Positions 18,731 to 24,788 of a stretch of DNA of 40,236 nucleotides are shown here, in pieces. The notes beneath the pieces are model-generated. The model made no database searches and was not told where the DNA came from. It saw nothing but the letters and a program-made list of their open reading frames with translations. Position 1 is the first letter of the stretch, and each line of letters starts with the position of its first letter. The position numbers and the translations under genes are program-made. Source of the DNA: an uncultured Bacilli bacterium (GTDB lineage: Bacteria > Bacillota_I > Bacilli_A > RF39 > UBA660); the NCBI GenBank assembly GCA_947589105.1, contig CANQBL010000008.1, forward strand, positions 1-40,236, given 5' to 3'.

Positions 18731-19051
18731 CTAATCTAAATTATTAATATCAAATATTCCCTTAATTGTTCCGTTAGTGTTATTCCAGCAATTTCTCCAA
18801 TCTTCGTTTCCTAACCATCCCATTATAATAGATATAATAAGTGGTACTAAAAACACTATAACTGCTGCAATAACTCTCTTAATAAGAGTTTGTTGATGCT
18901 TTTTAATATCTTCATCCTTTCCTGCAATAACTGCTTTTACCAAATCAACAGTACCAAATACAATTAATATTATAGGTACAACCCATTGAACTATTTTCAA
19001 AGCAAACTTTACTATTGATACAAGATTATCTAACCCATTACAATAATCCAT
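18731..19051 (-). CDS. VirB2/TrbC-like small membrane protein (candidate pilin)
   Basis: The product has 106 aa. Two membrane helices (about 17-37 and 52-72) are joined by a short charged loop (AGKDEDIKKHQQTLIKR), the hallmark of VirB2/TrbC-type pilins. There are Cys residues near both ends (MDYCNG and RNCWN). No cleavable signal peptide is evident. It is the first gene of the locus, with a strong promoter, a GGAGG site and its own terminator, as expected for a subunit needed in high copy. Confidence 0.78.
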   Translation of the reverse strand: MDYCNGLDNLVSIVKFALKIVQWVVPIILIVFGTVDLVKAVIAGKDEDIKKHQQTLIKRVIAAVIVFLVPLIISIIMGWLGNEDWRNCWNNTNGTIKGIFDINNLD

Positions 19052-20737: not shown

Positions 20738-21736
20738 TTATAAACTTTTATATATTTTTTTTAATTTTTCGCCTATTATTCTTAAATCTCTTTGTTTAGC
20801 AACATCATAAGATTGCTCACTAACACTAGGAAGTTTACCATCAAAAAATAGTTTTATTTTCTTTTCGAAATCATCAACATCTTTTGCCTTGTAAACATTC
20901 TTACCATCAATAAGCCATCCATCAAAAATTGGAATATCTCTTATAATAGCATTTTGTTTACAAGCACAAGCTTCGATTATAGGAATTCCTTCAGTTTCTT
21001 CTAACGTAGGAAATAAAAATAAATCCGCTCCATTCATTGCCCCTTTTATTACATCTTGCTCAACATACCCAGCAAAAGTTAAATTATCTAGTTTCGTATT
21101 AACTGCTTTCCTAACCTTTTTAGTAGCAGCAATTAAAGGACTATAACCAAACCATATAAACTTATACTCTGGAAATCTTTTAGCAAGCTCAACAAAATCT
21201 ACAATTCCCTTTCTTTCTATATATAAACCAATTCCAAAAATAACCTTATCTTCTTTAGTAAATCCATAAATCTTACGAAAATTTTCCCCAAGTTTTCTAT
21301 CTTTTTTAAAAAAATCTAATTCAATACCATTAGATACAGCATATATTTTTTTATTTTCCAAACCTTTATAACCTTGTAAAAGTTTTTTTGAATATAAAGT
21401 TGGAGTTACTATAACATCGCCTAAACTATAACATTTAACTAACCATTTTTTAAATAATTTAGAAGTTAAGTTAGCAAAAATAAAGCCATTTTTATAATCC
21501 TCTTCTGTTGAATGAGCATGATATACTATTTTTTTACCTTGTTTTTTAGCTTTTTTTGCTAAAAAATATGATTTAAGAAAATAAGTATTTATATGTAAAA
21601 TATCATAATCATCTTTAGGATTTAAAGTATAGTTAATGCCTTTATATTCTAACGCTTTTACCTGGTGTTTTATTGCCTTTCCTAAGCCTGATTTACCAAC
21701 TACTTTTAATCCTTCTGAATATAATAATACTTTCAT
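20738..21736 (-). CDS. GT4-family glycosyltransferase, CpoA-like (glycolipid)
   Basis: The product has 332 aa with a GT-B fold: SGLGKAIKHQVKAL at the N-terminus, DILHINTYFLKSYFLAKKAK, VYHAHSTEEDYKNGF and the C-terminal EX7E-type motif LEETEGIPIIEACACKQNAI. The opening resembles Gram-positive CpoA-type enzymes that add a sugar to membrane glycolipids (glycosyl-diacylglycerols). It begins one base after the OapA-like gene, so the two are co-translated. Family assignment is firm; the lipid acceptor is inference from similarity. Confidence 0.82.
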   Translation of the reverse strand: MKVLLYSEGLKVVGKSGLGKAIKHQVKALEYKGINYTLNPKDDYDILHINTYFLKSYFLAKKAKKQGKKIVYHAHSTEEDYKNGFIFANLTSKLFKKWLVKCYSLGDVIVTPTLYSKKLLQGYKGLENKKIYAVSNGIELDFFKKDRKLGENFRKIYGFTKEDKVIFGIGLYIERKGIVDFVELAKRFPEYKFIWFGYSPLIAATKKVRKAVNTKLDNLTFAGYVEQDVIKGAMNGADLFLFPTLEETEGIPIIEACACKQNAIIRDIPIFDGWLIDGKNVYKAKDVDDFEKKIKLFFDGKLPSVSEQSYDVAKQRDLRIIGEKLKKIYKSL

Positions 21737-21737
21737 C

Positions 21738-22331
21738 TTACTTAACCTCCCTTTTAAATAAACTAACTATTTTAGCAAACTTAAAAACGATTACATCACT
21801 TTTATTAATTGCATAACTTTTACCCATTGCTTTACCACCTATCGTTAAAGCTGCTAAAACAGCAGTTAAAATAAGCGTTACTACGCTTTCATTAAAAGAA
21901 AATTCTTTTGCTATTACTAAAGATATAAGAATACCAATTGAACCCGATATTATTCCGCATACATCACCTATAACATCGTTACAAAAAGCAGAGACTTTTT
22001 CAGCATTATTTATTAAAAAAATTGCTGTTTTACTACCTCTTATCTTTTTTGCTGCCATAGAATTAAAAGGTTTTAAATCCGCGGCGGTAACCGCAACACC
22101 TACCATGTCAAAAATAACTCCGATTAAAATAATAGCAAGTACTATAATAATACCAATTATAGCATTTATGTTAGATACTACCGTTTCGGTTAAACTAGAA
22201 AATAATATTGATATTAAAAACGCCCAAAAAGTAACAGAAAAAACCCATTTAACATCTACGTAACGTTTTGGTACTTTATCTATCTTCTTTACCTTTTTTT
22301 CATATTTTTCATTAAAAGATTTAAACTTCAT
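21738..22331 (-). CDS. OapA-like four-helix membrane protein (OLE RNA-associated)
   Basis: The product has 197 aa and four membrane helices (about 28-46, 56-80, 120-142 and 148-170). The conserved loop GVAVTAADLKPFNSMAAKK and INNAEKVSAFCNDVIGD matches what I recall of OapA, the membrane partner of OLE RNA, which is also annotated as a short CorB/DUF21-like protein. OapA binds OLE RNA at the membrane and affects tolerance to alcohols, cold and magnesium. The ATG at 22331 has GGAGG 4 bases upstream. The gene lies downstream of a ~560-nt structured RNA gene on the same strand, as expected. Identification is from memory of the family and was not searched. Confidence 0.75.
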   Translation of the reverse strand: MKFKSFNEKYEKKVKKIDKVPKRYVDVKWVFSVTFWAFLISILFSSLTETVVSNINAIIGIIIVLAIILIGVIFDMVGVAVTAADLKPFNSMAAKKIRGSKTAIFLINNAEKVSAFCNDVIGDVCGIISGSIGILISLVIAKEFSFNESVVTLILTAVLAALTIGGKAMGKSYAINKSDVIVFKFAKIVSLFKREVK

Positions 22332-22346
22332 AAAACCTCCATACAT

Positions 22347-22372
22347 AAAAAGGAAAATCTAATTTTCCTTTT
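22347..22372 (-). terminator. Terminator or attenuator between the 191-aa gene and the OapA-like gene
   Basis: AAAAGGAAAAT (22348-22358) and ATTTTCCTTTT (22362-22372) form a perfect 11-bp stem with a three-base loop, which is the TAG stop codon of the upstream gene. On the minus strand it is followed by TTTTTATG. It may act as a partial terminator that tunes expression of the membrane protein. Confidence 0.7.
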
Positions 22373-22934
22373 CTTTATTTACATAAAAATTAATTGTTCT
22401 TTCTAGCGGCCCTTCTTTAACTTTTTTTAAATCTGTTTCATCAAGAACAACATCATTTACAACCCCACTTCTTTGCTTTAATTTATTATATTCATTTTTT
22501 ATTGAAATTAATTCAGATTCATATTTTGAAATTGTATTAATACATTCTTCTAACTTTTTTTGTGTTTTTTTCTTCTCTTTTTTATTAGTAGTAAAAATTC
22601 CTAATTTAATATTTTCTTTTTCAATTATAATTTTACTTATAATAGCTTCCACATCATTTATAGTATCATCTATGTTTTCTATATCATCTCTTATTTTTTC
22701 ATTAATAAAGTTGTTAATTAAAAGAAGTTTTATAATCTCTTTAACAATATTTGAAGTTTTTCCTGATAAAAAATTAATATCTTTATCAATTACACTTTTT
22801 AAAGCTTTATTAAATTCTTTTGAAGCTACTACTGGTTTAGATGAATCTAATCCTTCATTATTTTTTATTTTAGATAAATCTATTTTTTCACTTCCTAGAC
22901 TATAAAATTTTATTTTAGAATTGGTATCGTACAT
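22359..22934 (-). CDS. Unknown coiled-coil protein next to the OLE-like RNA
   Basis: The product has 191 aa, is soluble and lacks a signal peptide. Residues about 85-160 form a predicted coiled coil (KKKTQKKLEECINTISKYES) with a basic patch KKEKKKTQKK. The N-terminal part is helical around INNFINEKIRDDIENIDDTI. I do not recognise the family; it does not look like the known OLE partners OapB or OapC. AGGAGG is 8 bases upstream of the ATG. It lies between the structured RNA and the OapA-like gene, on the same strand. The basic coiled coil and position make an RNA-complex role possible; this is inference. Confidence 0.75.
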   Translation of the reverse strand: MYDTNSKIKFYSLGSEKIDLSKIKNNEGLDSSKPVVASKEFNKALKSVIDKDINFLSGKTSNIVKEIIKLLLINNFINEKIRDDIENIDDTINDVEAIISKIIIEKENIKLGIFTTNKKEKKKTQKKLEECINTISKYESELISIKNEYNKLKQRSGVVNDVVLDETDLKKVKEGPLERTINFYVNKEKEN

Positions 22935-22974: not shown

Positions 22975-23003
22975 AAAAAAAAAAGATTGTACATAAGTAC
23001 AAT
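22975..23003 (-). terminator. Intrinsic terminator of the OLE-like RNA
   Basis: On the minus strand, ATTGTAC-TTAT-GTACAAT (22986-23003) is followed by C and then ten Ts. It fixes the strand and the 3' end of the RNA gene. Confidence 0.92.
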
Positions 23004-23010
23004 TAAAATA

Positions 23011-23572
23011 CCGTGGAATCTTCCATGACAAACTTTGCGTCTTAGGTCAAGTTGGATTTCCCACCCTTCCACCTTCTGTTACCATCCGGCCGTTCCCATT
23101 TAAGAAAGGGCATGTTTTCTCACGATTAACATTACTTGATTACCACTTAGTACGCACTGCAATTTCAAGAAAGTTACAGTCTAGGAAATTTCTTCAAATG
23201 AATAAATCACTATTAGCTCTTTTTTGCAAGATAAATTTCAGATAGCAATAACCTTTAACCTATGCCTAGGTTAAAAATTTGATCCATCTTCCCAATACTC
23301 TCACTCAAGGCAAGCTACACTACTCATAGCGCAAACCACATAGTAGGTTTAATCTTAAGCCGTACAAAGTCTATGCATTGCACGAACTTAAGTCTCCGCG
23401 TATTGATGGGTCAAATCTGTATGCCTTTACAGTATGCCCAGCAAACTCATATCCAGCACCCACCCCAATCTGGGCGAAAGAAGCAAGCACAAGACGTTTC
23501 ACAGGTATGCTCTTTAACGAATTTTTAGGCCCGTCTTCATAGTGCAATTCAAACTAGAATACTGCTCCACGG
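23011..23572 (-). ncRNA. ole: Large structured RNA, probable OLE RNA
   Basis: About 562 nt without a coding frame and with clearly higher GC content than its surroundings. The ends pair: CCGTGGA at the 5' end (23566-23572) with TCCACGG at the 3' end (23011-23017). Inner hairpins include arms 23254-23262/23267-23275 and 23354-23367/23381-23392. It has its own promoter starting transcription at the terminal stem, and its own terminator. Length, closing stem and the OapA-like gene downstream point to OLE RNA (ornate, large, extremophilic; about 600 nt), which forms a membrane ribonucleoprotein. The ROOL RNA class has a similar size and is the main alternative. RNA gene: near certain; OLE identity: likely. 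Confidence 0.75.
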
Positions 23573-23578
23573 CTAATA

Positions 23579-23607
23579 TTTATACCATATTTTATTAAAG
23601 TTGTCAA
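23579..23607 (-). promoter_or_regulatory. Promoter of the OLE-like RNA
   Basis: On the minus strand, a perfect TTGACA (23602-23607) and TATAAA (23579-23584) have 17-base spacing. The expected start site, 6-8 bases downstream, coincides with the first base of the terminal stem. Confidence 0.9.
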
Positions 23608-23669: not shown

Positions 23670-24788
23670 TTATTTTTTGCCACTTTTTAACTTCTTTTTA
23701 TCTTTAGAGTTTTTATTTTTAACATGTTTTTTTAAGGCACTAGGTACGTTAAGATGCACCTTTGCCTTATCCGTTAATATATCAGTTGTTAGTACTAGCC
23801 ATATTATTAGAATCATTATAACAACATATATCATAATGCCAGCTTTTTTGTCCTTTAATATATAAAAGATAGAAGCCAAAGAAAATAAAAAATTTACTGC
23901 ATATATTATTAAAACCGTAGTTTTTTGACTAAATTTTTTATTTAAAAGTTGGTGATGAATATGCTTTTTATCCGCAACATAAATAGGTTTTTTATGAATT
24001 ATTCTTCTAATTATAGCAAATAATGTATCAAGAATAGGAATAGCCAAAATAAGTAAAGGAACAACTAAAGAAGTTAACGTAACTGCTTTAAATCCCATTA
24101 AGCAAATAACCGCAATCATAAATCCTAAAAACATAGAACCAGTTTCACCCATAAATATTTTAGCAGGATTAAAGTTAAAGATTAAAAATCCTAAACATGC
24201 TCCAAGCATTATGAAAGTAATGGTTATTTCCAAGCTTCCTATGTTATGCATAATAAAAGCTATAACACCAATGGTTGCAAAGAAAATAGCAGAAATACCA
24301 CAAGCAAGACCATCTAAACCATCAATTAAATTAATGCAATTCATAAGCGCTATTATAAAAATTATGGTAATAGGATATGCGAAAATACCAAAGTCAAAAT
24401 AAAATCCAAAAAATGTTATATCATTAAGCAAAATATTACCATAAAAAGTTACTATTAAAGCAGCAATTATTTGTCCTATTAGCTTTTCTTTTGCTTTTAA
24501 AGGTTTTATATCATCAATAATTCCAGTTAAAATAACAATGAACCCAGCAATTAAAATAGCTAGCATTTGTGTATTTTGAGGGGCAAAATACATGTATCCG
24601 AATAAAAATCCAAAAAACATCATAAGGCCTCCCAATAAAGGCATTGGTTTTTTATGAATCTTTCTTTCATTTGGATAATCTAGTGCATCAATATGTTTTG
24701 CAATCCATTTTACAATTGGAAAAAAAATGCTAGTAATAGCCATCACTGATAAAACTATTTTCACAACTAACGTTATCTTGTCACTCAT
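23670..24788 (-). CDS. tagO: Undecaprenyl-phosphate GlcNAc-1-phosphate transferase (TagO/WecA)
   Basis: The product has 372 aa, a polytopic membrane protein of about 10-11 helices. Motifs: KIHKKPMPLLGGLMMFFGF, the aspartate-rich IDDIKPL, NLIDGLDGLACG, ETGSMFLGF and the KKHIHHQLL loop whose HIHH distinguishes GlcNAc-type WecA/TagO from MraY. It transfers GlcNAc-1-phosphate to undecaprenyl phosphate, the first step of wall teichoic acid or related glycans. The last ~25 residues are strongly basic. It follows two glycosyltransferase genes on the same strand. Confidence 0.93.
   Translation of the reverse strand: MSDKITLVVKIVLSVMAITSIFFPIVKWIAKHIDALDYPNERKIHKKPMPLLGGLMMFFGFLFGYMYFAPQNTQMLAILIAGFIVILTGIIDDIKPLKAKEKLIGQIIAALIVTFYGNILLNDITFFGFYFDFGIFAYPITIIFIIALMNCINLIDGLDGLACGISAIFFATIGVIAFIMHNIGSLEITITFIMLGACLGFLIFNFNPAKIFMGETGSMFLGFMIAVICLMGFKAVTLTSLVVPLLILAIPILDTLFAIIRRIIHKKPIYVADKKHIHHQLLNKKFSQKTTVLIIYAVNFLFSLASIFYILKDKKAGIMIYVVIMILIIWLVLTTDILTDKAKVHLNVPSALKKHVKNKNSKDKKKLKSGKK

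What the first reader, a model, noticed from the sequence alone, without database searches (positions are those of the whole stretch)
22975..23607. Large structured RNA gene with its own promoter and terminator, probably OLE RNA outside its classic hosts
A perfect -35 and near-perfect -10 with 17-base spacing, a ~562-nt non-coding body closed by a 7-bp terminal stem, and a strong terminator all agree on one minus-strand RNA gene. An OapA-like gene lies downstream. OLE RNA was first described in extremophilic and anaerobic Firmicutes; here it is next to wall and glycolipid genes in what looks like a gut-type Bacilli genome.
Basis: partly seen in the sequence, partly recalled or inferred. Interest (0 to 1): 0.9.

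Follow-up and report, generated by a model that had tools for sequence, protein, structure and literature searches.

The report
OLE RNA gene in gut Bacilli
The window holds a genuine gene for OLE, one of the largest structured RNAs in bacteria, next to its membrane-protein partner; that is a known kind of find, but following it up showed the RNA and its partner being gained or lost together without the expected replacement, and turned up the RNA's unsolved 3' half on its own inside the tRNA clusters of large phages.

Summary
Window 22997-23586 (-) is a full-length OLE RNA (RF01071, 365 bits against a cut-off of 50, E=6.5e-104). It has a promoter conserved in the genus, a 7-bp closing stem and a terminator. 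Its obligate partner OapA is two genes downstream (21738-22346). OLE in reduced gut Bacilli (RF39, TANB77) is already published, so the gene is a new member of a known kind.

Added here: (1) in the window's genus OLE and OapA sit on opposite sides of an unrelated gene, yet 6 genomes have both at this site and 12 have neither; two of the 12 carry a short 'variant 2' OLE-OapA pair elsewhere. Over 291 family genomes presence agrees in 281, and most exceptions are contig ends. (2) The proposed replacement, MpfA, is in 0 of 291 of them, so losing OLE here is not paid for by gaining MpfA. OapC and TerC/MeeY are absent in the genomes tested; bS21 is present. (3) The most novel lead lies outside the window: 13 contigs that IMG/VR calls viral carry a ~150-250-nt RNA that is OLE 'domain 2' alone, mostly within 9-18 nt of an upstream tRNA. 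It lacks domain 1 and OapA and shows strong covariation. I found no report of it.

The parts
22997..23586 (-). OLE RNA (full-length type, P7 and P8 present); the RNA body proper is about 23572-23011
   Evidence: RF01071 365.2 bits, model 1-616
23602..23607 (-). -35 element TTGACA
   Evidence: read directly; TTGACN kept in 5 other genus members
23579..23584 (-). -10 element TATAAA, 17-nt spacer
   Evidence: read directly; TATANN kept in 5 other genus members; not listed by the generic scan
22975..23003 (-). Intrinsic-type terminator (7-bp stem, 4-nt loop, U tract); also present at OLE-less alleles, where it follows the upstream gene
22359..22934 (-). 191-aa coiled-coil protein between OLE and OapA; present in all 18 genus genomes with or without OLE, so not an OLE-specific partner
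   Evidence: no Pfam family
21738..22346 (-). OapA, the CNNM-like membrane partner of OLE
   Evidence: weak CNNM match; 38-85% identity to proteins that accompany OLE in relatives; directly downstream of OLE in nearly all named loci
20738..21736 (-). IagA/BgsA-family glycolipid glycosyltransferase; right border of the variable site
   Evidence: NF053513 469.6 bits, cut-off 460
23670..24788 (-). WecA/MraY-like glycosyl-phosphate transferase; left border of the variable site
   Evidence: PF00953

Best explanation
The gene encodes a full-length OLE RNA. Transcribed from its own housekeeping-type promoter, it folds into the OLE architecture, dimerises and is held at the cell membrane by OapA, forming a ribonucleoprotein that affects divalent-cation (Mg2+) handling and stress tolerance. 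In this lineage the particle must work without OapC, and neither MpfA nor TerC/MeeY is there as a backup; OapA, and possibly bS21, are the known partners that remain. Shown here: family membership, promoter and terminator, co-occurrence with OapA even when the two are not adjacent, absence of MpfA family-wide, absence of OapC and TerC in the members tested. Inferred from work on H. halodurans and from cryo-EM of clostridial OLE: membrane location, dimerisation, role in Mg2+ and stress.
For: Covariance-model score and full coverage. OLE/OapA over 291 family genomes: 183 both, 98 neither, 3 OLE only, 7 OapA only (not corrected for phylogeny). Of the exceptions, G185 and G127 end at contig edges, and G253, G125 and G294 show a cut-off piece of OLE beside OapA at the contig edge. 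In the genus the two flank an unrelated gene at one syntenic site (6 genomes with both, 12 with neither), and G016 keeps a possible OapA 3' remnant. In 76 of 78 OLE loci compared OapA follows on the same strand, median gap 21.5 nt. MpfA marker PF03471 0/291; TerC 0/22 and L7Ae (OapC family) 0/22 in the family; bS21 in all 36 family genomes, one below the curated cut-off.
Against: No transcript, location or phenotype could be tested. The P9 loop that kisses in the cryo-EM dimer (GGCC in the consensus) reads GGCA in four of the six genus members, which may weaken that contact. Many relatives do without OLE, so it is dispensable in this niche. One recombination event spanning the coiled-coil gene could move OLE and OapA together without functional coupling.
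Confidence: 0.93

Rival explanations
1. The RNA is another large ornate class (ROOL, GOLLD) or an mRNA leader of the downstream operon rather than a stand-alone OLE gene.
For: Similar size, and a gene follows on the same strand.
Against: Only OLE passes the cut-off in the window; a terminator lies between the RNA and the next gene, which has its own promoter-like site; OapA is nearby.
Confidence: 0.02
2. It is a decaying, non-functional OLE copy on its way to being lost, as in sister species.
For: OLE is lost or absent in 10 of 18 genus genomes; P9 loop change GGCC to GGCA.
Against: Full model coverage at 365 bits, 83-92% identity to the five other genus copies at this site, promoter conserved, OapA intact.
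Confidence: 0.05

Closest known systems
OLE RNA, full-length type (RF01071; H. halodurans, Clostridium)
   Same: All 616 model positions spanned, OapA partner, own promoter and terminator.
   Different: 590 nt; OapC family absent from the host family as far as tested; OapA separated from OLE by a coiled-coil gene; neighbours are wall-glycan and glycolipid genes rather than the ispA/xse/dxs set.
OLE variant 2 (common in RF39; PMC11332333)
   Same: Found in the same GTDB family and even the same genus as the window (G008, G009).
   Different: The window copy keeps P7 and P8; variant 2 is about 491 nt, lacks them and here also the P9 tip, and sits at another locus (rlmN-prpC-prkC).
ROOL and GOLLD RNAs
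   Same: The OLE-domain-2 RNAs found in viral contigs lie in tRNA clusters, as ROOL and GOLLD do (PMC12286853); one contig (L243) carries both.
   Different: Sequence and fold of those RNAs match OLE domain 2, not ROOL or GOLLD.

Membership tests
OLE RNA (window copy) | Score above the RF01071 gathering cut-off over the whole model | tested here: met
   365.2 vs 50 bits, model 1-616
OLE RNA (window copy) | Encoded in a genome with OapA, usually next to it | tested here: met
   OapA 21738-22346, two genes downstream
OLE RNA (window copy) | Full-length type: P7 and P8 present | tested here: met
   Both hairpins align; absent in variant 2 loci L016 and L019
OLE RNA (window copy) | OapC (L7Ae family) in the host | tested here: not met
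   PF01248 0 of 22 family genomes including the own one; not a required feature: ~45% of OLE hosts have OapC (PMC11332333)
OLE RNA (window copy) | OapB (YbzG) in the host | not tested
   Published as largely missing in RF39/TANB77 (PMC11332333)
OLE RNA (window copy) | Expressed, membrane-bound, dimeric | not testable with these tools
   Needs RNA-seq, fractionation, cryo-EM
OLE RNA (viral-contig domain-2 RNAs) | Domain 2 (P1, P2, P10-P15) sequence and helices | tested here: met
   RF01071 68-124 bits in the 11 contigs run; 30 of 61 pairs show two-sided change, cells 99 vs 34.4 (sd 5.0) in shuffles and at most 20 when slid
OLE RNA (viral-contig domain-2 RNAs) | Domain 1 (P3-P9) | tested here: not met
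   5' segment joins P10 directly; a tRNA ends 9-18 nt upstream in most contigs read, leaving no room. They are therefore not filed as OLE members
OLE RNA (viral-contig domain-2 RNAs) | OapA encoded | tested here: not met
   No OapA relative confirmed in IMG/VR or in the flanks of the 11 contigs checked

The most novel reading that the evidence does not exclude
OLE domain 2, the 3' half whose structure is unsolved and which is modelled as lying outside the membrane, exists as a free-standing RNA of about 150-250 nt in tRNA clusters of large phages of gut and rumen bacteria, without domain 1, without the proposed membrane-spanning stem P3 and without OapA. It would be an autonomous module, used by phages either for its own function or as a decoy for a cytoplasmic domain-2 partner such as OapB. 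Existence as a conserved structured RNA is well supported here; phage origin rests on the IMG/VR assignment plus phage-type neighbours; function is conjecture.
Probability: 0.75. Interest if true: 0.8.

Novelty: new member of a known kind. Interest (0 to 1): 0.55.

Why it matters
The window gene places OLE in one more lineage of reduced gut bacteria and gives a fine-scale natural experiment: species of one genus with and without OLE-OapA at the same site. It shows that OLE loss need not go with MpfA gain, which limits the published clade-level anticorrelation. The domain-2-only RNAs in viral contigs, if confirmed, would give a small construct for the half of OLE that cryo-EM could not resolve. 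They would also bear on the transmembrane model, because they lack the P3 stem proposed to carry domain 2 across the membrane.

Tried and rejected
Coiled-coil gene 22359-22934 as a new OLE partner: rejected, it is in all 18 genus genomes regardless of OLE. A hidden OLE in the 565-679-nt gaps at OLE-less alleles: rejected, they hold ORFs of about 140-170 codons. MeeY/TerC as backup for OLE loss: absent in the genomes tested. Ro60-type identity of the phrog_850 neighbour by similarity to solved structures: no match. OLE in GenBank phages by blastn: none; in plasmids one partial match to the 5' region (H1), not followed. Most of the 45 first viral pattern hits are chance; the profile confirms 11 as domain 2. 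The rpoB tree was unreliable with short rows and was replaced by rpoB+rpoC, still with many weak branches.

Full report
OBSERVATION. The minus strand at 22997-23586 matches Rfam OLE (RF01071) over all 616 positions with 365.2 bits (cut-off 50; E=6.5e-104); nothing else in the window passes any Rfam cut-off. It is the only OLE in the 1.04-Mb, 92.5%-complete assembly. The generic scan did not list the promoter or the terminator because of its rules, but the promoter is conserved in the other five genus members that have OLE at this site. No ORF of 60 aa or more lies inside.

WHERE IT SITS. Order on the minus strand: WecA/MraY-like transferase (23670-24788) - OLE - coiled-coil protein (22359-22934) - OapA (21738-22346) - IagA/BgsA-type glycolipid glycosyltransferase (20738-21736). 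OapA shows a weak CNNM match and aligns with 16 OapA proteins of relatives at 38-85% identity. In 76 of 78 OLE loci compared (the window included) OapA follows OLE on the same strand with a median gap of 21.5 nt; the coiled-coil gene intervenes only in the window's genus. Upstream glycan-biosynthesis genes recur in this clade, though shared descent explains part of that.

CO-PRESENCE. All 18 genus genomes can be read at this site: 6 have both OLE and OapA, 12 have WecA - coiled coil - IagA with neither. The OLE-less alleles share the terminator stem or have a small ORF in the slot. G016 keeps ~85 nt resembling the OapA 3' end next to IagA (best score 41, shuffle maximum 35, against one relative; weaker against others), a suggestive scar of loss. 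G008 and G009 have instead a ~491-nt 'variant 2' OLE (no P7, P8 or P9 tip) with an OapA 38-42% identical, at a shared rlmN-prpC-prkC-rsgA-rpe locus. An rpoB+rpoC tree needs at least 5 changes of OLE presence over 20 genomes, but many branches are weak. Family-wide (291 genomes) OLE is in 186 and OapA in 190: both 183, neither 98, OLE only 3, OapA only 7. G185 and G127 are contig ends; G253, G125 and G294 show a cut-off OLE fragment beside OapA at the contig edge; G189 belongs to a genus in which OLE and OapA lie on different contigs (G020); G301 is a marginal hit; G074, G281 and G300 stay unresolved. [quoted passage not shown]

PARTNERS AND REPLACEMENTS. MpfA, proposed as the protein replacement of the OLE particle (PMC11332333), is missing in all 291 family genomes by its CorC_HlyC domain, although the same search finds it in 11 of 14 control genomes. 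So the species without OLE have not gained MpfA. TerC/MeeY (0/22) and L7Ae/OapC (0/22) are also absent in the family members tested; bS21, a reported OLE component, is in all 36, one below the curated cut-off. OapB was not tested.

MECHANISM. Most likely the OLE-OapA membrane particle described for H. halodurans, here without OapC. Shown: family, signals, coupling with OapA. Inferred: membrane location, dimer, Mg2+/stress role (PMC12265935, PMC12286853).

THE UNEXPECTED PART. A scan of IMG/VR with an OLE core pattern gave 45 loci; an OLE profile recognises 11 of them over the 3' part only, and Rfam itself calls those 11 at 68-124 bits, with tRNA genes around and, in L243, a ROOL RNA. A second pattern added L272 and L273. 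Aligned, the RNAs consist of the OLE 5' segment (AAUGGCACGNUAUUCUAGU, P1/P2) joined directly to P10-P15 and the 3' strand of P1 (UGCCAUU): exactly the published domain 2, with domain 1 (P3-P9) missing. A tRNA ends 10-18 nt upstream in seven contigs by ARAGORN coordinates; L263, L228 and L256 show the same arrangement when read by eye; L239/L241 leave 181 nt and L247 has a shorter 152-nt form. Folding ten distinct sequences gives 61 pairs, 30 with two-sided change; 96.2% of cells paired, 99 two-sided cells against 34.4 (sd 5.0) in shuffles and at most 20 when slid (the shuffle does not correct for relatedness and the structure was derived from the same alignment). In a tree of the ~210-nt core the ten form one group apart from bacterial OLE (support 99/97). 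No OapA relative was confirmed in IMG/VR. Neighbours include phage-type gyrase subunits, a phage tRNA-His guanylyltransferase, a lytic transglycosylase similar to tail proteins, and phrog_850 'RNA-binding protein' (DUF2828/DUF7788) 0.4-6 kb downstream in L239, L263, L269 and L272. No terminase or capsid gene lay in the stretches I could read, so the viral origin rests on IMG/VR plus these genes. The held papers do not report OLE or its domain 2 in phages; one Nature paper pooled phage and bacterial genomes in its OLE search without comment in the parts read. By the membership rule these RNAs are not filed as OLE, since domain 1 and OapA fail; they are OLE-domain-2 RNAs.

LIMITS. All genomes of the family looked at appear to be metagenome-assembled, so absence is partly assembly-limited; the readable empty sites argue that most absences in the genus are real. 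Nothing here is an expression or function test.

Noticed in passing
L243:11610-11830, L254:11501-11720, L266:11211-11435, L272:5362-5587, L239:1837-2056 and 8 further IMG/VR loci: Free-standing RNAs matching OLE domain 2 only, just downstream of tRNA genes in viral contigs, no OapA; 30 of 61 pairs covary on both sides.
   Followed up: yes
L272:5961-7517, L263:4253-5764, L269:9740-11257, L239:7992-9506: A phrog_850 'RNA-binding protein' (DUF2828/DUF7788) lies 0.4-6 kb downstream of the domain-2 RNA; possible partner.
   Followed up: partly
L046, L047, L048, L049, L051, L052, L054: At OLE-less alleles the OLE slot often holds a small ORF (about 140-170 codons) with promoter-like sequence upstream; it faintly recalls a J-domain start.
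   Followed up: no
window 23291-23240: P9 loop reads GGCA rather than the self-complementary GGCC of the OLE consensus, the same in L009, L010 and L013; this loop makes the P9 kissing contact in the cryo-EM dimer.
   Followed up: partly
L215 and L216: Variant-2 OLE-OapA pair sits beside the rlmN-prpC-prkC(PASTA kinase)-rsgA-rpe cluster in two species of the window's genus.
   Followed up: partly
window 18731-19051: Small protein matching type IV secretion system pilin (PF18895), near uppS.
   Followed up: no
NZ_AP023421.1:200851-200968: A 504-kb Pusillibacter faecalis plasmid has a partial match to the 5' part of OLE (hit H1), in a stretch with no listed gene.
   Followed up: no
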